A stretch of DNA of 23,315 nucleotides from Neolecta irregularis DAH-3 (Eukaryota; Ascomycota; Neolectomycetes; Neolectales; Neolectaceae). Below, in pieces: positions 1,186-21,998 of the stretch. A program made the translations under genes and the position numbers. The notes beneath the pieces are model-generated. The model saw nothing but the letters and a program-made list of their open reading frames with translations. It searched no databases and was not told where the DNA came from. The stretch lies in contig LXFE01000156.1 of assembly GCA_001929475.1 (NCBI GenBank), positions 1-23,315 on the forward strand, in the 5' to 3' direction. Position 1 is the stretch's first letter. Every line of letters begins with the position of its first letter.

Positions 1186-2377
1186 TTAGTTGGATAGAAC
1201 GATGTGGGCTTTACCAGCTGTAAGACTGGCAGTACAACCGCTATTTCCATTTGTATTCCCACCGAACTGGCCGTTTGAAATAGAGCATGCACCATTGACG
1301 GTAGATCCGGGTGCAGCCACTATTTGTGCATTGAAATTTATTTTTGAAGAGGTTAGTGGATTAGCAATCAGCGAGACGTATGTGATTCCGTCTGAAGTGC
1401 CTGCGCCTACATTCAACGGGGCCCAATTTCCTAGATTCTGAGAAGAGGAGCCCCAGACACAGCCTTCAGTGATGGCGATGCCGGCAGAGTTCACATAGTA
1501 TTGTGTTGAAGTGGGTTTGCCGTTCCACTTGAAGTAGCTGCTTTGGTCTGGGACAGAGAGCGGTTGAGTTTCGCCAGGGGCGATGCTTACTGGACGGACC
1601 ATGTTTTCTGTGCCGGGGTAGTCTGTGGCGCAGAAGACGACCTGTTGGGAGAGGTTGTTTACAACGTAGACGGTATCCGTGCCCCATTCGCAGAGGTAGG
1701 GGGACCTGTCAGGGGAGGTGAGGGTGAGAACCCCGTTTTTGCAGAGCAGGCCGCCGACGGAGGCGCCGTTTGCAGGCTGCGATGCCGGCCATTGTGTTTT
1801 GAGCATTCCGGCCTGGCAAGCATAGGAGCAGTAGACGCCTTCCGAACAGGCGGAGGCTGGGGAGTGAGCGGGGCAGGACAGGGAGAGGGGAGATACGGTT
1901 GAGGCCGCCCGGGTTCTGGAGGCCGGCCCAGCCGCCGAGATTGAGCCAGGCGAGGTTGAGGACGCCGGGCTGGTCGCCGGGAAAGGACGAGCAGGGGATG
2001 GAGTTGTCGGGGAAGGGTGTGGCGGGCGGGGCGAAGAGGCCGAGGAGGGCCTGGGCGAGGGCACTGACGACGGGGTCTGAGGAGCCGACGGGGGAGGTGG
2101 CGGCGGAGGATGGATGGGGCGTGTGGGCGGCCGGCGGGGTGGTGCCGGAGGCCTGAGGGGCGGCGCGGGAGGAATAAACAGCGGACGAGGACAAAGCAGC
2201 AGCAGCAGCCTCAGGAGCGGGTGCCGGGGTGTGCGAGGGCCGCGCAGTCTCGGTGACATAGACGACGACGGTCTCGATTTTGACGCCGTCGTGGTTGCGC
2301 GGGTGCAGGTGATGGCGGTGCCGGGCGAGCGGCGAGGCGGAGGCGGCGAGAGCAAGAGCGAGCAAGGAGAGCAGCAT
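1186..2377 (-). CDS. SUN-family (GH132) secreted cell-wall protein
   Basis: Two exons on the minus strand, 2377-1897 and 1856-1186, split by a 40-nt intron (1896-1857; GTATCT ... CCCCAG, with GCTCAC before the acceptor). They encode 383 residues. The protein opens with a signal peptide ([15 protein letters not shown]), then a basic His-rich stretch ([14 protein letters not shown]) and VVVYVTETA, the usual N-terminal layout of Uth1/Sim1/Sun4-type proteins. A low-complexity Ala/Ser/Pro linker follows. The SUN domain covers roughly residues 125-383: [26 protein letters not shown], then across the splice [35 protein letters not shown] and [10 protein letters not shown]. Known members are secreted or wall-bound and act in wall remodelling and septation. 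The intron is supported because it restores the conserved cysteine block in frame. The linker and 5' half are very GC-rich, while the 3' end is closer to the local average. The gene is divergent from the alkyltransferase gene at 2679. Confidence 0.9.
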
Positions 2378-2560
2378 TGAAGGAGTGGGCAGAGCAGGCA
2401 GGCTGAGACTGGGTCTGGGTGAGTGGGAGAGAGCGCGGCAGGGGCGGCAGTGTTTTTTTTGCAGCGGCCAGGAATGCCCCGCCCTTTTCTACCCGCCGCG
2501 GAACGGAGGGGCCTGTGCGTGTCTTGCTGCGGCACGCTGATCTCCATACATAACTCTGGG

Positions 2561-2674
2561 TGTCTGTCTGTCTATCTGTCTATCTCTCTCTCTCTCTAGC
2601 TATCTCTCTGTATCCATCTATCTCTCTGTACCATCGTATGCCCCGTATCCATCATATCCATCGTATCCATCCAT
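2561..2674. repeat. Compound pyrimidine microsatellite (TCTG/TCTA/TC, then CCAT-rich)
   Basis: Runs of TGTC, TATC and TC units pass into repeated ATCCATC/CATATCC units. The stretch fills the shared upstream region between the SUN gene (start 2377) and the alkyltransferase gene (start 2679). Its purine/pyrimidine strand bias could affect promoter structure. That is inference. Confidence 0.75.
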
Positions 2675-2678
2675 CTAC

Positions 2679-3171
2679 ATGTCCCGCTCCCCCTATTTCC
2701 ACCCCTCCCCCGATCAATCCATCTCCTCCTATTGCAATACTGTCCTCCTTCTCTGCTGCCAGATCCCGCCCGGCCACGTCGCCTCCTACAAGGCCATCGC
2801 CCTCGCCCTCCATTCCTCTCCCCGCGCTGGTCTGCCCTTTCTCTCCCCCCTGACCTTGCAGTAGGAAACGCTCTCAAGCACAACCCCTTCTCCCCAACTG
2901 TCCCCTGCCACAGAGTAATCGCCACAGACGGCTACATCGGCGGTACCCCGCCCTTTAATTCCTTCAATTAATTCGCTCAGGCTTCAAGGGCGGATGGGGC
3001 ATCCACTCCCACTCCTGCAAATCAAAACTCCTTCTCCTCGAAAATGAAAACGTCCATTTCGACAACAAAGGTCGCATCATCAATCCTAAATTCTTTACCG
3101 CCTTTGACACTGCTGCTTTGTCCACGCGTGTCCTTCCTGTACACAAAGCGTCGCGCCCCTCCGATAATTAA
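2679..3171 (+). CDS. MGMT/ATL-type DNA alkyltransferase-like protein
   Basis: Three exons: 2679-2829, 2862-2942 and 2981-3171, encoding 140 residues. The introns are 32 nt (GTCTGC ... CCTGACCTTGCAG) and 38 nt (GTACCC ... GCTCAG). Splicing restores the O6-alkylguanine-DNA alkyltransferase core: IPPGHVASYKAIA, SPRAVGNALKHNPF, the active-site motif VPCHRVI (Cys about residue 66), GYIGGFKGG, then KLLLLENENVHFD. In this family the PCHR cysteine accepts the alkyl group from O6-alkylguanine. Members lacking the cysteine are non-enzymatic ATLs, so this one should be catalytic if folded. It has only the C-terminal DNA-binding/catalytic domain and a short N-terminus, like the small fungal members. The usual (T/S)YG of the helix region reads SYK. 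The start at 2679 is the first plausible Met. A further upstream exon cannot be excluded. Confidence 0.8.
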
Positions 3172-3520: not shown

Positions 3521-3656
3521 CGCTATTTATAAGTAATAGACTCGCTGTAAAAATAAAGTCAAAACATTACACATTACATAATATGGTGGTGGAGATTATT
3601 CTTCAACTTCATATCTGATTTCTGCCCTCCAATATTCATTCAGTCGCCACCTCGCA

Positions 3657-5292
3657 ATGTTCCCTTGTCGAATGCTCTCCCGCCGTCTCCGTCCTCTAAT
3701 GAGGACAATGGTGACTGTCTCCCGGACAAGTGAAGCAACAGTCCAAATAGGCAAGGGCGTCTCCTTGTCTCCTATAAACGCAGCAATCTCCCAATCTACC
3801 ATTTCTCAATCTGGAAATCGTCCAATATATCTCGATATGCAAGCGACGACACCAACAGATCCCAGAGTCCTCGATGCCATGCTCCCGTTTTATTCAGGTT
3901 TATATGGAAACCCACATTCGCGCACACACGCTTATGGCTGGGAATCTGAAAAAAGTGTGGAAAAGGCCCGAGAACATGTTTCTGCGTTAATCGGCGCCGA
4001 CCCCAAAGAGATTATATTCACATCAGGAGCAACTGAATCAAACAACGCATCAATAAAAGGTGTCGCTCGATTCTATGAATCTAAAAAGAAACATATAATC
4101 ACTACAAACACCGAACACAAATGTGTCCTTGACTCTTGCCGAGTCCTTCAAGACCAAGGTTTCGACGTGACCTTTCTTCCCGTGCAATCCAACGGCCTCG
4201 TTTCACTAAGCGATTTGGAAGCTGCTATTCGTCCAGATACAAGTCTAGTCTCGATAATGACTGTCAACAATGAAATCGGGGTAATTCAACCAATTCAGGA
4301 AATCGGTTCAATCTGTCGAAAACATAAAGTATTCTTTCATACAGACGCTGCCCAAGCCGTAGGGAAAATACCGGTTGACGTGAATAAATTCAACATTGAT
4401 TTAATGAGTATCTCAAGTCATAAGATTTATGGACCAAAAGGTATTGGGGCAGTTTACGTTCGCAGAAGACCTCGAGTTAGAATTGAACCACTTATTAGTG
4501 GCGGCGGTCAAGAACGTGGATTAAGAAGTGGAACATTGGCGCCTGCTCTAGTCGTTGGTTTTGGCGAAGCTTGCAAGATTGCAAAAGAGGAACTCGAGGT
4601 ATTTTCTTTTTCTTCTTTTTTTCTGGCAAAAGAGCTTGATGATGATAATGGGTGCCAACCTTTGTGCTAATAAACCTCTTTTTTCCCGTGTGGACTTTAG
4701 GTTTATCATGCGCTTTTGTGCAGGGGTTCCGAGAGACTTTTCGTTTGCTCTCTTTTACTTTTCACTTTGTTTTATCTACTGACGCAGTAGTATGACCATC
4801 AACATGTTTCCCGATTATCCAAACATCTTTTAGAGGGTCTCACATCAATTCCACACGTCGTTTTAAACGGAGACAAAGACAGCCATTATCCTGGCTGCGT
4901 AAACGTATCATTTGCTTATATCGAAGGAGAATCACTCCTCATGGCTCTCAAGGTATATCTTGTCTTGATCTCCCGTTTGTAACGTATGCAGGATGTAGCG
5001 CTGAGTTCAGGCTCCGCTTGTACATCTGCATCCCTTGAACCTTCCTACGTCCTCAGAGCACTCGGCGCAGACGACGATATGGCTCATTCATCCATCCGTT
5101 TCGGCATTGGTCGTTTCACTACTGAAGCCGAAGTACTTGTCCTCTTTTCTATTCACGAGCTAATCAGTTTAGATTGACCACGTCGTAAATTTGGTAAAGA
5201 GTAAAGTCGACTTTTTAAGAGAATTGTCTCCGCTTTGGGAAATGGTGCAGGAAGGTATAGATCTCAAATCAATTCAGTGGAGTCAGCATTAA
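3657..5292 (+). CDS. NFS1: Mitochondrial cysteine desulfurase (NFS1)
   Basis: Four exons: 3657-4598, 4791-4952, 4992-5132 and 5173-5292, encoding 454 residues. The introns are 192, 39 and 40 nt. The enzyme takes sulfur from cysteine for Fe-S cluster assembly and tRNA thiolation, working with Isd11 and the Isu scaffold in the mitochondrial matrix. The N-terminus ([15 protein letters not shown]) is basic and free of acidic residues, as in a presequence. Visible motifs are [29 protein letters not shown], the cofactor region [20 protein letters not shown], the PLP lysine in [10 protein letters not shown] (about K256), the catalytic loop [14 protein letters not shown] (about C378), and the C-terminal [18 protein letters not shown]. 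Length and order match eukaryotic NFS1 closely. Intron 1 is about five times longer than any other intron here and ends GCAGTAG. Only the second AG keeps the frame (LEYDHQ), because the first would place TAG in frame. Confidence 0.97.
4599..4790 (+). other. Unusually long (192-nt) intron 1 of NFS1
   Basis: It begins GTATTT and ends CTACTGACGCAGTAG, with long T-rich runs and no coding frame. The other introns assembled in this window are 32-44 nt. It contains an internal GCTAAT...TTTAG stretch around 4662-4701 that could be part of a second, nested intron, but that is speculative. An ATGATGA box lies at 4639-4645 without a suitably spaced CTGA partner. Confidence 0.8.
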
Positions 5293-8426: not shown

Positions 8427-9221
8427 TTATAGCTCATGCTTTGCTTCGAAGTCCGTTGGTTCAACTTTATTTCCAGTAAGGAGATTCTCGACATCTTTGG
8501 CAATTGACTCTGGTTTCGCAGTCGAAGCATAACGATTGACTACCTACCACTGTTAATCGCTGATTATCTGATGTGTCATGAACATTGCCATTTTTGTCAA
8601 CCAAGAACTTTTCTTATCGCATTAGAACAATGTGAAAGATTCAGGGTTTACCAAAGTTCCATTTAATTCTCTTTAATCCAAGTAATCCAGCTCTTTAAAG
8701 TCAACATCAAGGGGGATAACAGAAGGCCGCACTTTTTATCCTTCAACCAGCCAAATACGGCGTCCTCTTTATCTCCATTGACGTCAATTTTTCCTAAAAC
8801 TGGAAACGAAACACCATAGTTCACTTGGCAGAACTGTTGGATTTCGTTGTTGGTCCCAGGTTCTTGGGATCCAAATTGGTTTGAAGGAAACCCAATTATC
8901 GTCTATCGTCTAAACTTCCAACCTTTACCCAAGACGACATACAAATCCTTGGTCTTTATATTTTTTGTATATCTCTTCAAGACCTTTGTATTGCTACATG
9001 GTCAGTCATTCAAGTAAGAGGAACGGCAAAGATACAGAGGTAAATCCACATTTGGAAGCAACATTGACGATAAGAACTACATGGTCCTTTAATTGAGCGA
9101 AGCTGAACTGTTCGCCTTTCGCATCGGCAGGCGCAAAATCGTAAAATGAAGCAGCAGAGGCCATTTGGAGGAGGAGCAATAATATGGCTAGAATGAGAAA
9201 AAAGGCGGCGTTTGCGGGCAT
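8427..9221 (-). CDS. Glutathione peroxidase family, probably ER-resident
   Basis: Six exons on the minus strand: 9221-9036, 8993-8943, 8902-8733, 8692-8652, 8612-8584 and 8543-8427, encoding 197 residues. The introns are 42, 40, 40, 39 and 40 nt. Motifs of the Gpx/Hyr1 family are SFYDFAPADAKGEQFSF, NVASKCGFTSQYKGLE (peroxidatic Cys about 58), FPSNQFGSQEPG, QQFCQVNYGVSFPV (resolving Cys about 104), KIDVNGD, LKRIKWNFEKFLVDKNGN and RYASTAKPES. Such enzymes reduce peroxides, in fungi usually with thioredoxin. Two additions are unusual: a hydrophobic leader of about 22 residues (AAFFLILAILLLLLQMASAA) before the normal start of the fold, and a tail after the last helix ending in KHEL, a KDEL-like tetrapeptide. 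Together they suggest retention in the ER lumen. A second Met at residue 20 could give a leaderless cytosolic form. The cysteine usual in FPCNQF is Ser. Donors of introns 3 and 5 (GTGCGG, GTTCAT) are weak, but the restored frame is conserved. Confidence 0.93.
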
Positions 9222-9484
9222 TTTGTACCCGACCTGTCCTACTTGATAAATGACGTAGATTTAATGAGGGATCCCGAGAATCCGGCCCTTGCTTCTTTGT
9301 TCTTACCGATTACTGTAGATACATAGAACATGGCGCAACTTTGCAATCTGCAGGTTGATACTAGTTTAGCAGTAGACTCTATGATGACGCAACAAGCAAT
9401 ATTCTACTCTATGCATGTCGACGATGAACGGGTATTAAATAGTTAGACAAAAATATAATTCTCCAAGTGGGAAACCGCAGCCAG

Positions 9485-11943
9485 CTACTCTGCTTCCAGA
9501 CTCACATACCCTGAATCCTCTCCGAATCCATTAATCCGTTTACAAAACCCAATACATTCTCTCACAACATCTCGCCTCTTCTTTAGCTCCACCAGACCCG
9601 CGTGTTCCTCATGGCCAATCCAAACTCGCAAAGCGGCAGCGACATTCTCCAGGACACTCTCAGTCTTCTCATCGATTTGAATCCGCTCTTGCACAACGAT
9701 AAAATGAAACACGCGCCATAAACCAATCATTCCCAATGGTCCAAGACGATCCAGTAGAAATGGCGTATCGTCGTGTCGAAGAGCACTAGTCACCCATCCC
9801 GAGGAAAGCAGTAGATTTCGAATAGAACAAACCATTCCTTCCGAGATTTCAGTCTTTGTTAATAAGCCAAGAAGAATGGCGCAACGCATGGCCACACAGA
9901 TGTCGTCGTTGATCCGAACCACGTCACCATCCTTCGAAATAGCAGGTACCGAATTCGTTTCAATCACTTGTAAAACGCTCTTCAAGCCGTCTTTCCAGAG
10001 ATTCATAACAGGGAGTAAAGTTACTTCACCGGGACGCAACAAAGCCGTTAAAAGGACCAACCAATGCTGGAAATCGGGATGAGGTGGGGGTACGACGTCG
10101 ATATAGTCTTCAAATTTGAAGCTGGAGGGGCTTGCATTTCCAAAAGATCCATTTATCGCGGCGACAGCATACTTGTGAACAAAAATGATCGAGAGCGCAT
10201 CAAGTGGGTACCGAACAGTTGAATCATCAAGAACAACTTCTTCAAAGAAAGAAATGGAATGCATTCGTGCAACGATTTCTTCACAGAACAATTCATCCGG
10301 ATCAACCTCTAACAGTCGTTGTAAATGAGCAGGAATTGGATCTGATGATCTTTTTACTTGCAAATACTTGGCCCTGTTCCAGAAATACGATGAAACCCAG
10401 GCTCCTGTTTTCTCCGGAAGAAAATCAAAAGAAAGAACACGGAAATGAAGGGCGTTGGTCATAAGACGCAAAGTGGTCACTGGCATTGTCAGACTCGCCA
10501 AAAACGTCAACACAAGTCTCGCTCGATTTATCAATTTATCGCCCCCGAGAAGTTGAGCATCGATTGCGAGTTCCCAAGCTGCTTGTCTAGCGAGATCGTC
10601 CGCTGCTGAGGTATTCGTAAGTAATCGATATCCATCAATGCCAATCAATATTCGCATCCCCATACGGAGAGCTCTCATTGTCAATGCGATAGTCAAGCAA
10701 AAGTACGAGGAATAAGGCACCCATACTGACTGCATTGCTGTTTCGAATGCCATTCGATGATCTGTATGGGTTGACGAAGAATTCTGACTAGATGGATGGG
10801 CATCAGGTGTACTCATTGATCGATGGAGACCGGTTACGGGACAAGTTTGATCTGATTCTGATTTTTTCCTTGATGAAATGAAAAATCGAGGTAAGCCAAT
10901 AAAAATCAATACAGAGAGCAGTAGCATAAGTTTCAATAGAAACGCTATCTGTGGGTTAACCATCGGCGTAACCATATTCGCTGCTTTGCCCAGAAATATT
11001 TTAGTGATTCCCGGGATCGCCGCAAGTCCCTGTGTTCCCGAATTTTCATCAGCGGTACTCCCCAGAAACATCAATCCGGCAGCACTGGCCAGTATCGCCT
11101 TTGGCACCAGACTTTTTTGGAAAGGAGTGCTCTGTCCATCTCGTTTTTGCATGCTCTCCAGACACCGTTTCAATATGGTGACTTCTTCGGTCAATTGCCG
11201 ATTCCGACCTTCCAGATGATGGATATATTCAGTTGCCTTTTCCAAAACCGTACCCTTTTTAATTTTATCGGATTGCTCGGATTCTATGCTAAAAGCCGGA
11301 ATGCAATCACGGAGCGCACCGAGTTTGTCGTTTATCCTATTTCTATAGCGCTTTTCGATCACATTGTGCGATGTTTTTACTTTTCCAGGTTTACTTACCC
11401 TACCGTTCGCAACTTGTGCAGATGTCCACGATGTGGATTTTAAGGATTTGTGTTTTTGAGATGGAGAGGAAGATGAGCAATCCGAAGCCAGAGATCTCTG
11501 AGATTGATCTTCTGATCTAATTGAAATGCCTGGTGAATTAGTACCACTCTCAAGTAAAGCGACGTGCTTGACGGAGAAGTAGACAGTATTACAAACTCGT
11601 CATTTTGTGAAAACTGTTCCTTCCTAACCGTCGGTTCATAAAGATTTCTACTGTCGACCATATTCGCATCCATCGTTCCAAACCAATCGGAGTATGTAAA
11701 ATGCGCAGGTGGAAGAGTATTTCCCCACATCTCTGAACTAAACTGTGTATCTTGTGCGTGCATTGGCGTGAGGAATGTACTTTCCGTTGACGAGACAGAA
11801 ACCGGCTGCTGATGTTGGCGCTGATTAACAGTATCGAGGCCCTGTAGGATCGCAGAGTAATCTAGCGATTGATCCACCTGTTGCTGGAGGTAAGAATTTA
11901 TATCATCCGTAGCAATAGAAGGGGGCATGTAGACACTGTCCAT
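9485..11943 (-). CDS. SREBP/Sre1-like membrane-bound bHLH transcription factor
   Basis: The main exon runs from about 11516 down to 9485. It encodes the bHLH basic region SHNVIEKRYRNRINDKL with the SREBP-diagnostic Tyr, helix-loop-helix and zipper (KKGTVLEKATEYIHHLEGRN ... LTEEVTILKRCLES), then hydrophobic segments NPQIAFLLKLMLLLSVLIFI and YFCLTIALTMRALRMGMRIL flanking a polar loop, and a long C-terminal domain. In fungi such factors are released from the ER by cleavage under low sterol or low oxygen and activate ergosterol genes. An upstream exon in another frame (Met at 11943, good context; MDSVYMPPSIATDDINSY, Gln/Ser-rich) fits an activation domain. The two frames must be joined by an intron whose length is 2 mod 3. 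Candidates are 11563-11517 (47 nt) or 11572-11517 (56 nt), each ending ATTAG, but neither donor is strong. With the 47-nt choice the protein has 803 residues. Confidence 0.85.
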
Positions 11944-16546: not shown

Positions 16547-18425
16547 CTACCCAGTGATTCTCTTCCACACTAATTCTAACGCTGACTTTGCGTCTTCAAA
16601 ACTATCGTGACCCTTTGCCCCTGCATCTTGTATCTTCTTATTCAGATGCTGAGCCGCGAGATCACGTAGTTTGAGTCGATAAGGCCGGCCTCGAGGCGAT
16701 GGATACAATATCGAAGTGTCTATAATCCGATGGTGAACGAGACGCAGTGACAAGAGATCGTTTTCTAGACCATGTCCAATGAAAATCGTTCGTGAATCAG
16801 TAAACTTGAAAAGTTGTCCACGAGCTTCACTGAAAGACACAGCTGGAACGTCTTTTAACGAAGTAATACCGCTGAATCGAGTATTATAATCGAGAATAGT
16901 GTTTTCTGGTCGAACGAAAATATCAACAAGTTTTTCGCCGTCCCAGTCGACTATCGTCACTCGTGAAAGTTCCATTCCCGAGGTTGTATAGACCATCTCG
17001 CAATCCAATGCAATAGCAGGTAAACCACCCTCATCGGTTGGTGATTTGATGAATGGTATCTGAGAAGCAAGTCTACTATGACTTGAAATTTTGAAAACAT
17101 GAACTCCTTGACAACAACCAGTTGATTCTGCAGCAGGTAAAGCACAACACGTATACTGCCGTCCTGAAAAGTCATTTTTTTGTATCTTAAAAGGGAGAGT
17201 AACACACCTCCTGTAGTAGTAGTCAGACGCCCCCAATGAAAACAGCATTCGTTTTCGACAGGGTTATCAGTAACTGTATAACGCTGAGAACACCGATCAC
17301 ATTCTCTCCTTTCTCCAACTTCGTCCTTGGGAGCGTTGACTTCAGGCTCTGGAAGATCAATAGGAAAGCCCCACTTCTCCAATTCAGGAACAGGATGGAC
17401 ATACTTTTCCGCCTCGACAACAGCTGGCGCAGCAGATTCGTTGGCAAAAGTTTCCATTATCGCTCGTTTCTTGAGTGCTAGTAAAGAAGATCTCGACTGC
17501 GGTTTATAAGTATATTTTAAATTCTCGGATTTCAACAGCTTTTCTTCATTTATAATAGCATCTTTACGCGCTTGATTGTCACGATCCGGATGATTAGTAT
17601 AAATACGAAGATATTCATTATGAAATAGTCTAAGCATTTGATTTCGTGTTGATTCGGAAATAGGACAGATTTTGACTTGGACAGGGGCGAGAGCTTCGGG
17701 TGCAAAAGGAGATACTGCTGGGTTCGCCTTGACGCGAGGGCCAAGAGCTGCGAATCTTTCAGCCGCAGTCTTTGCTTCCTGCGTGATAGGTGCGAGAACA
17801 GACTTTGATCGTACAGGTCTGATCAGTTTTGTCGAGGCATCTACAGGGATTACAGGAACTGAAAGAACTCGAGTTGACGCGACTGGATGAGTGCCTGTCT
17901 GCACGGACTGCAGAGAATTTGTCGGAATGAGACAGTTATCGTTTCCATTATCGTTGCAAGACATCACAATTTTGGAGTTGCAAACATTGGAATCGTTCTT
18001 GAGGATTGGGGCTTCCTTGATCGTCTCTTTATGAAGGAGTTCTTTTTCTTCATCGGTAAATTTGCCGTGCGCTCCTTCAAGGGTCCTTTGTTTCTTGGAT
18101 GGGTGTTCTAAGGGTCCTCAATTACAATTGCAAGTAGGATAATAGTACGAGTTTCAACATGCACCTCCTTTTCCAAATTGCCATTCAAGAGATCTCGAAC
18201 CCTCGCTTCTTGTTCAGCTGTGAAGATTTTACTTCTCTGAGTCGATGGGATCGTGGCTTCAAGTTCGATCGGAGGATCTTCCACGTCGACGACTTGGGTG
18301 CAGCCCACAGGATCCGCAAGCGCTGCTAAATTTCGCATGATTTGAGCTAATCGGCGATTGTTGGCGCATTTTGGTTCTTTACATTGAGGATTCTTGCCGT
18401 GAGGACATTTTGGTGATTGGTTCAT
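16547..18425 (-). CDS. REXO/Rex3-type DEDDh RNA exonuclease
   Basis: Three exons on the minus strand: 18425-18149, 18107-17208 and 17163-16547, encoding 597 residues. The introns are 41 nt (GTACTA ... CCCTTAG) and 44 nt (GTGTGT ... TTTTCAG). The N-terminus has a Cys/His cluster (CPHGKNPQCKEPKC) of zinc-finger type. A linker follows, then the family's second metal-binding segment CDRCSQRY ... ECCFHWGR ... YTCCALPAAESTGCCQGVHVF around residues 350-416. The C-terminal exonuclease domain has all DEDDh motifs: AIALDCEMVY (D446, E448), IGHGLENDL, IIDTSILYP, and GHDSFEDAKSALELV. Members trim the 3' ends of RNAs such as RNase MRP RNA, snRNAs and 5S rRNA in the nucleus. Splicing of intron 2 reconstitutes the cysteine cluster, which supports it. 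Rex3 is the closest named relative I can suggest, with REXO1 an alternative. Confidence 0.9.
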
Positions 18426-20620: not shown

Positions 20621-21998
20621 TTAAACTTCAACAAAAGCTCTATAGATAACACATTTCTCAGTTTCCGATCGAATTTCTAATTCAGCATCTGCACCCACAA
20701 AGACTACTTTTCCGGTAGTCATTTTTTCTTCCTTGCCTCCAACGATAATCTTCCCTCCTCCCTGTGTACAAATCATTATACTTGGCCCAGATAATCCTTC
20801 AATAATCTGCTTTTCTCCAGAATTCAGGACAGTCAATAGCACACTGAATTCCGCAATCGGCGGGTCGAATAACACCGTCTTCCCATCTCCGGTTGCACGA
20901 GAAAAAGGCCATGGTTCAATCTTTTGAGATTCCGCAGGCCCACAGTCGTATGTTAACATGGATACCAAGTTTTTGACATCTTTAAATTTGGGCGTAAATC
21001 CTGCACGAACAACGTTATCGCTCGTTGCCATACATTCAATCGCATCTTGAATTTATTGACAAGTAATCAAGTTGGTTACCTCCAGATAAATAAGCGTGAA
21101 TGTCCTTTGCTTTAAGAAACATTGCTTCTCCTGGCCGAAGTTTGATATAATTCATCATAAACACACAAAACAATCCTATATCTCCAGGATACTGTTCATT
21201 GAGCCGAAGAAGTAAATCTCCCAACTCTGGATCCTCTTTGAACCCATACTTCCTAATTCGAGAAACAAGTTGATTGGATAATTCCTTGATTTTAGTCTCG
21301 CTGGATTCCATCAACTCTGTAAATAGGGACCTCAAAGCCTCCTTTGAGTCAGAGTTTATAGATGAAGAGAACTCGTGATTTTCACCGACTAGTTCGGAAA
21401 ACTCGGGAACTGAAGAGAGAAACGATTTGATTTGATCAATTGGTCGAAAGCCACAGAGACCTGCAAATGGAGTAATTGCAATAACCATCTCCGGTTTGTG
21501 ATTGCTATCTATATCTTAAATTCAATCCGCCTGATGAGAGACCTTTGTAATTTTTGGGATCATCGGCATGTAAACGTTTCGCAAGGTCTTTGTCTGGATG
21601 GGCTTGGATTGATAGTGCCTTGTCTATCGAGAGTACCTTAAATAAGAACGGGAGATCGCCATCGAAGCGAGAAAACACTTTATCGCCGAGAAGTGAACGA
21701 TTTTCAGAGAGTAGGGTTTTCAGATCACAGTTGTCGTGAAAAGAGGTCGATGGACCGGAAGGATGAGTCCCCATCCATAGCTAGATATGAGAACATGGCA
21801 TAAGTTGAACAGTACTTCAGCATACCGCTTTGAAGGATCTATATCGCTGTCCGAGGTTGCCTGGGCGAAACGTGCGACTGCGGATGTTGATCCTGGCTTT
21901 CCTAGACAGTTTGAGGAAGAGTTACTCAAGAAAAGCAAGACACCCCATTCATAACACTGCAATTTACAGGATAATTGGATAAGCGGTGGTGGGAGCAT
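20621..21998 (-). CDS. Mannose-6-phosphate isomerase
   Basis: Five exons on the minus strand: 21998-21944, 21901-21816, 21780-21543, 21508-21080 and 21045-20621, encoding 410 residues. The introns are 42, 35, 34 and 34 nt. The enzyme (type I PMI, PMI40/ManA) interconverts fructose-6-phosphate and mannose-6-phosphate in the cytosol, feeding GDP-mannose for protein glycosylation and wall mannan. Zinc-site and active-site motifs are present: [40 protein letters not shown] (Gln106, His108), NHKPEM (Glu133), FCGFRP-type [14 protein letters not shown] (His264), and [20 protein letters not shown]. The C-terminal cupin part is complete (PIAEFSVLL ... [11 protein letters not shown]). Length is typical for fungi. 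Splicing is well supported, since each junction falls in a conserved block. It shares orientation with NOP16 upstream, with about 200 bp between. Confidence 0.96.

What the first reader, a model, noticed from the sequence alone, without database searches (positions are those of the whole stretch)
8427..9221. Glutathione peroxidase with a signal peptide and a C-terminal KHEL
The six-exon model gives a standard fungal Gpx core, but it carries a ~22-residue hydrophobic leader before SFYDF and a tail (GNKVEPTDFEAKHEL) beyond the usual end of the fold. KHEL resembles KDEL/HDEL ER-retrieval signals. Vertebrate GPX7 and GPX8 are ER-resident, but fungal Gpx/Hyr1 enzymes are normally cytosolic or mitochondrial. 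An ER-lumen Gpx would link to oxidative folding. Whether KHEL is read by this fungus's receptor is inference.
Basis: partly seen in the sequence, partly recalled or inferred. Interest (0 to 1): 0.75.

Follow-up and report, generated by a model that had tools for sequence, protein, structure and literature searches.

The report
Fungal peroxidase possibly sent to ER
An otherwise ordinary fungal thiol peroxidase gene in Neolecta irregularis can be read with a secretion leader and ends in an ER-return-like tail, so one form of the enzyme may work in the endoplasmic reticulum, though this is not shown.

Summary
The window is Neolecta irregularis DAH-3. A six-exon minus-strand gene (9221-8427, five GT-AG introns of 39-42 nt) encodes an intact Hyr1-type 2-Cys Gpx of 197 aa with a hydrophobic N-terminus and a KHEL end. 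Two corrections: the deposited protein (178 aa) starts at Met20, where 35 of 119 listed homologs also start, so the leader is an unannotated 19-residue extension; the KHEL tail is already in the deposit. For an ER form: leader hydrophobicity is frame-specific (0 of 20,000 shuffles reach it); the tail end is poorly ordered in the model; Neolecta ER-type proteins end HDEL (three), KDEL and KEEL, and its KDEL receptor is human-like. Against: position -3 is acidic in all five of those but His here; a leaderless Tuber Gpx ends KAEL; no listed homolog has both features; the leader may be 5' UTR, perhaps a 41-nt intron. Best reading: Met20 gives the cytosolic enzyme, Met1 an ER-directed form (probability about 0.45). 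It is a Hyr1-type Gpx, not GPX7 by model cut-off. No transcript or localisation data were available.

The parts
9165..9221 (-). Leader extension, residues 1-19 (MPANAAFFLILAILLLLLQ); with Met20-Ala24 it has signal-peptide anatomy: no Lys/Arg before residue 35, 12-residue hydrophobic core F7-L18, A-x-A site at A21-A23
   Evidence: first ATG after an in-frame stop at 9263; T at codon position 2 in 12 of 19 codons against 4 and 3 at positions 1 and 3. A-x-A rule recalled.
9162..9164 (-). Met20, the start codon of the deposited protein and of many homologous Gpx
   Evidence: P0001 (178 aa) begins here; 35 of 119 homologs of the first list start exactly here
9036..9221 (-). Exon 1 (leader, N-terminus, peroxidatic Cys58 at 9050-9048)
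8943..8993 (-). Exon 2
8733..8902 (-). Exon 3 (FPSNQFG motif with Ser86; resolving Cys104 at 8830-8828)
8652..8692 (-). Exon 4
8584..8612 (-). Exon 5
8427..8543 (-). Exon 6, ending with tail and TAA stop
8430..8477 (-). C-terminal tail TGNKVEPTDFEAKHEL (16 aa past the conserved LL)
   Evidence: model pLDDT mean 54 for the last 8 residues, with a short predicted helix there
8430..8441 (-). KHEL codons (AAG CAT GAG CTA)
9188..9228 (-). Possible 41-nt 5' UTR intron (GTACAA...CATTCTAG) that would remove Met1; lacks the YTRAY branch-like motif found in 8 of 9 Neolecta introns checked

Best explanation
A Hyr1-type 2-Cys thiol peroxidase with two in-frame starts. Starting at Met20 it is the ordinary cytosolic enzyme. 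Starting at Met1, the 19-residue leader plus MASAA acts as a cleavable signal peptide (cut after A23 or A24) and delivers the same enzyme to the ER, where the exposed KHEL end is returned from the Golgi by Erd2, probably more weakly than HDEL or KDEL. In the lumen Cys58 would be oxidised by H2O2 (for example from Ero1), form a disulfide with Cys104 and pass it to a PDI. Shown here: gene structure, catalytic residues, leader anatomy, tail, and Erd2, Ero1 and PDI-type genes in the same genome. Inferred: use of Met1, cleavage, retrieval, dual use and PDI coupling.
For: Intact frame and splice sites. Frame-specific hydrophobicity: 0 of 20,000 shuffles reach it, and the other two frames are not hydrophobic. 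Only this ATG and one repeat reach 3.0 among 1593. No Lys/Arg before residue 35, unlike a typical mitochondrial presequence (presequence rule recalled). Poorly ordered tail end. Lys at -4 is used in this species: an FKBP with a signal-peptide-like start ends KDEL and a Scj1/ERdj3-like DnaJ protein with such a start ends KEEL; a BiP-type Hsp70 and two PDI-type proteins end HDEL. These ends were read from frames, not from full spliced models. Erd2 (spliced from L003) keeps R5, R47, D50, E117, W120, R159, W166 and R169 (residue roles from PMC8248988). Ero1 present. HTEL, and by citation HIEL, hold carboxylesterases in the ER without Asp at -3 (passages of PMC4624787). Yeast Gpx3 is dually targeted by an 18-aa upstream extension (passages of PMC5368413).
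Against: The deposited model starts at Met20, as do 35 of 119 homologs; 41 more start just inside it. The Asp at -3 that pairs with receptor R169 is His here, while all five Neolecta ER-type ends I found have Asp or Glu there. A leaderless Tuber Gpx ends KAEL, so such ends arise without a leader. 0 of 234 listed homologs have both features. The leader is 70% pyrimidine, and the 57 nt before the Erd2 ATG, where no leader is coded, are 67% pyrimidine. No RNA or localisation data. A basidiomycete survey states that earlier studies found only cytosolic fungal GPx and itself adds mitochondrial predictions (passage of PMC10512322).
Confidence: 0.45

Rival explanations
1. Ordinary cytosolic Hyr1/Gpx only. 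Translation starts at Met20, the leader is pyrimidine-rich 5' UTR (possibly part of a 41-nt UTR intron), and KHEL is a chance end.
For: Deposited start, and 35 of 119 homologs start at Met20. Leader 70% pyrimidine, like the 67% before the Erd2 ATG. A GT...CTAG stretch of 41 nt, a usual intron length here, spans Met1. The KHEL pattern occurs genome-wide at the control rate. KAEL and two AKEL ends in leaderless homologs. His at -3 where five Neolecta ER-type ends have Asp or Glu.
Against: Frame-specific hydrophobicity not explained by dinucleotide composition. The putative intron lacks the branch-like motif found in 8 of 9 checked introns. It requires leader and tail to coincide by chance.
Confidence: 0.37
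2. The signal peptide works but KHEL is not read: the long form is secreted or goes to the vacuole or cell wall.
For: Leader evidence; His at -3 loses the R169 partner and is unlike the five Neolecta ends found.
Against: HTEL works in human cells; Lys at -4 is used by a Neolecta FKBP and a DnaJ protein.
Confidence: 0.1
3. The extension targets mitochondria (intermembrane space), as the upstream extension of yeast Gpx3 does.
For: Same place and nearly the same size (19 against 18 aa) as the yeast Gpx3 extension; S. japonicus Gpx1 (P0013) and other listed fungal Gpx have long N-terminal extensions.
Against: No Lys or Arg in the first 34 residues and an uninterrupted hydrophobic core; it would leave KHEL without meaning. 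No targeting predictor was run.
Confidence: 0.06

Closest known systems
Saccharomyces cerevisiae Hyr1/Gpx3 (PDB 3cmi)
   Same: Closest solved relative by sequence (235 bits) and first by Foldseek (57% identity); an upstream N-terminal extension reroutes part of the pool in yeast
   Different: Yeast extension starts at a non-AUG codon and is mitochondrial; here it starts at AUG, is signal-peptide-like, and the protein ends in KHEL
Human GPX7 / GPX8
   Same: Same fold; ER-lumenal, with signal sequence or membrane anchor and a KDEL-like end (REDL, KEDL; PMC3824332)
   Different: 102 and 106 bits against 235 for Hyr1; TIGR02540 gpx7 model 127.8 bits, below its 207.3 cut-off
Trichoderma reesei TrGPx (6vpd, 'Trgpx'; species taken from PMC10512322)
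   Same: Second-best sequence match in the PDB, 191 bits; thioredoxin-type fungal Gpx
   Different: No ER signal is mentioned in the passage seen; its ends were not compared

Membership tests
Glutathione peroxidase family (PF00255) | Match over the curated cut-off | tested here: met
   148 bits against 27, profile 1-108 of 108
Fungal Hyr1-type 2-Cys Gpx | Peroxidatic and resolving cysteines in the conserved places | tested here: met
   The position of Cys58 is Cys in 119 of 119 and 115 of 115 homologs of the two lists, that of Cys104 in 119 of 119 and 113 of 115. Trp and Asn of WNF invariant and Gln of NQF at 90% or more in a 37-row alignment of my choosing
Fungal Hyr1-type 2-Cys Gpx | Thioredoxin as reductant | not testable with these tools
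   -
GPX7 (animal ER Gpx) | Sequence membership (TIGR02540 equivalog cut-off) | tested here: not met
   127.8 bits, cut-off 207.3; Hyr1 is much closer
ER-lumen resident (KDEL class) | Signal peptide | tested here: inconclusive
   Anatomy and frame-specific hydrophobicity fit; use of Met1 unproven; no predictor program was available
ER-lumen resident (KDEL class) | C-terminal tetrapeptide readable by the species' Erd2 | tested here: inconclusive
   K at -4, E and L fit the receptor residues and species usage; H at -3 loses the R169 partner and differs from the Asp/Glu of five Neolecta ends
ER-lumen resident (KDEL class) | Tail conserved in relatives | tested here: not met
   1 of 234 other listed homologs ends in [KRH]xEL (Tuber KAEL, no leader); no second Neolecta species was seen in the lists
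ER-lumen resident (KDEL class) | Leader conserved in relatives | tested here: inconclusive
   23 of 235 listed proteins have a hydrophobic N-terminal extension, none with an EL end; leaders left out of deposited models cannot be seen this way

The most novel reading that the evidence does not exclude
The only Gpx gene found in the held 62% of the Neolecta genome serves two compartments. Retaining or removing the 41-nt stretch 9228-9188, or choosing between two starts, switches between a cytosolic peroxidase and an ER-lumen peroxidase held by a non-canonical KHEL signal: an ER Gpx in a fungus, evolved independently of animal GPX7/8.
Probability: 0.3. Interest if true: 0.65.

Novelty: new variant of a known kind. 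Interest (0 to 1): 0.42.

Why it matters
My paper searches (listings; passages of PMC10512322) showed no report of a fungal Gpx in the ER lumen. An ER form made from a Hyr1-type gene would be a convergent counterpart of animal GPX7/8, a possible sink for Ero1-derived H2O2 in fungi, and a test of how far position -3 of the retrieval signal can vary.

Tried and rejected
Second Gpx gene in the held genome: none seen (PF00255, P0001; every match lies in this gene). The held assembly is 8.96 Mb of a published 14.5 Mb, so absence is not proven.

Homologs selected by the tail region: P0001 alone, out of 3 candidates. Homologs selected by the leader region: 261 hits, best 120 listed, 115 of them new. 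Of the 235 listed proteins in all, 23 have a hydrophobic N-terminal extension, two of which carry an organism name (Dendryphion nanum, Lacunisphaera); none has an EL end.

Tail patterns: the HDEL pattern had 9 matches against 5 for the control. Six of the 9 are HDEL plus stop, and three of these I could assign to ER-type genes.

Pseudogene: rejected, all exons in frame. GPX7 membership: rejected. Plasmid match: none. Cyclophilin loci showed no ER-type end in the frames I looked at; of 20 DnaJ matches, 16 came with loci and were scanned.

Correction made on checking: I first passed over the KEEL end in L057. On a second look it belongs to a DnaJ protein with a signal-peptide-like start.

Papers: 'KHEL' with 'KDEL receptor': 0. 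Glutathione peroxidase, ER, HDEL, fungi: 6 listed. Glutathione peroxidase, signal peptide, fungal, ER lumen, KDEL: 1, the animal review PMC3824332. Secreted fungal Gpx terms: 12 of 40 listed. S. pombe/ER terms: 7 listed. 'Neolecta' with 'glutathione peroxidase': 0. In these listings I saw titles and abstract openings only, and no title on a fungal ER Gpx.

Full report
Identity and gene structure. The window is contig C211 of an 8.96 Mb, 363-contig assembly. Its Gpx matches 'Peroxiredoxin HYR1' of Neolecta irregularis DAH-3 at 100% over 178 aa; the species is a Taphrinomycotina ascomycete. The genome paper reports 14.5 Mb, 44% GC and RNA sequencing from fruiting bodies (PMC5309816, passages), so about 62% is held here. 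On the minus strand, six exons joined across five GT-AG introns of 39-42 nt give 197 aa without a stop. The deposited protein is residues 20-197: it lacks the leader and has the KHEL end.

The enzyme. Pfam GSHPx 148 bits over the full profile. Best solved relative by sequence is yeast Hyr1 (3cmi, 235 bits), then 6vpd (191 bits); GPX8 106 and GPX7 102 bits. Foldseek ranks 3cmi first. The position of Cys58 is Cys in 119 of 119 and 115 of 115 homologs of the two lists, that of Cys104 in 119 of 119 and 113 of 115. The FP-x-NQF position is Ser here, as in 17 of 119 and 14 of 115. It is below the TIGR02540 gpx7 cut-off (127.8 against 207.3 bits).

The leader, for. Met1 is the first ATG after an in-frame stop at 9263, 263 bp from the end of the upstream open frame at 9485. 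Residues 1-24 have a 12-residue hydrophobic core and an A-x-A site, with the first Lys at 35. T occupies codon position 2 in 12 of 19 codons, positions 1 and 3 in 4 and 3. Of 20,000 dinucleotide shuffles, 11,562 stayed open, none reached 3.58 and 4 reached 3.0. Of 1593 open ATG stretches in 95 kb, 9 reached 3.0: this one and 8 overlapping starts in one repeat of L019. The hydropathy test was chosen after seeing the sequence.

The leader, against. Of 119 homologs 35 begin exactly at Met20, 41 begin 1-6 residues inside and 43 are longer (16 of the longer ones have a Met at that place). The A-x-A site lies in MASAA, which comes free with that start. The leader is 70% pyrimidine, and so nearly is the 57 nt before the Erd2 ATG (67%). 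A 41-nt stretch, GTACAA...CATTCTAG (9228-9188), could be a 5' UTR intron removing Met1. It lacks the YTRAY motif that lies 8-11 nt before the end of 8 of 9 Neolecta introns checked (5 Gpx, 4 Erd2; the second Gpx intron lacks it too).

The tail. In the AlphaFold2 model of P0001 (37 rows, mean pLDDT 87.8) the last 8 residues average 54, with a short predicted helix at 171-174, so KHEL is not part of the confident fold. Neolecta's own ER-type proteins calibrate it: a BiP-type Hsp70 and two PDI-type proteins end HDEL, an FKBP ends KDEL and a Scj1/ERdj3-like DnaJ protein ends KEEL. The FKBP and DnaJ proteins have signal-peptide-like starts. These were read from frames, not full spliced models. So Lys at -4 is used, and -3 is acidic in five of five. 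Erd2 spliced from L003 aligns with KDELR2 over its length (250 bits) and keeps R5, R47, D50, E117, W120, R159, W166 and R169 (my reading of that alignment). Roles: D50 and E117 screen position -4, W120 binds it, Asp at -3 pairs with R169 (PMC8248988; abstract, sections 5, 9 and 13 and passages). K, E and L are therefore acceptable and H at -3 is the open point. HTEL, and by citation HIEL, retain carboxylesterases in human cells (PMC4624787, passages).

Base rates. KHEL pattern: 6 matches, control 6; 4 of the 6 are KHEL plus stop, and of these I assigned only the Gpx one to a gene. Among the 235 distinct listed proteins, 5 end in xxE[LIFV] or xxDL: P0001, Tuber KAEL, two AKEL and one CMEF; 23 have a hydrophobic N-terminal extension; none has both. 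The deposited P0001 would itself fail that test, because its model leaves out the leader. Only the best 120 of 7963 hits and of 261 hits were listed, so rarer cases could be missed.

Mechanism and context. Ero1 is present. GPX7 and GPX8 end REDL and KEDL (PMC3824332, passages). Yeast Gpx3 is sent to the mitochondrial intermembrane space by an 18-aa upstream extension (PMC5368413, passages), so rerouting by an upstream extension is known for this very enzyme type. A basidiomycete survey says earlier studies found only cytosolic fungal GPx and itself predicts a few mitochondrial (PMC10512322, passage).

Weighing. Leader and tail together on one gene are unlikely by chance, but each alone has a plausible trivial source. 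My estimates: ER-directed long form 0.45, cytosolic only 0.37, secretory without retention 0.10, mitochondrial 0.06. They are judgements, not computed.

Noticed in passing
window 9485-11599 (-): Open frame with helix-loop-helix and DUF2014 domains (SREBP/Sre1-like by recalled architecture) ends 263 bp upstream of the Gpx Met1 on the same strand.
   Followed up: no
window 3582-4670 (+), 1186-2571 (-), 16547-17263 (-), 21036-21515 (-): Class-V aminotransferase, SUN-family protein, RNase_T exonuclease and phosphomannose isomerase domains.
   Followed up: no
L040 (G000:C35, reverse strand), L057 (G000:C192), L021, L024, L025: Neolecta ER-type proteins mix KDEL (FKBP), KEEL (DnaJ) and HDEL (BiP-type, two PDI-type) ends.
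   Followed up: partly
P0018 (Tuber brumale Gpx): Leaderless Gpx ends in KAEL, while the T. magnatum homolog P0030 ends in AGL.
   Followed up: partly
P0002 (Candida viswanathii): 339-aa annotated protein that by eye holds one partial and one complete Gpx domain in tandem.
   Followed up: no
L019 about 2570-2715 (+): Leucine/methionine-coding simple repeat gives a very hydrophobic open stretch; perhaps only a repeat.
   Followed up: no
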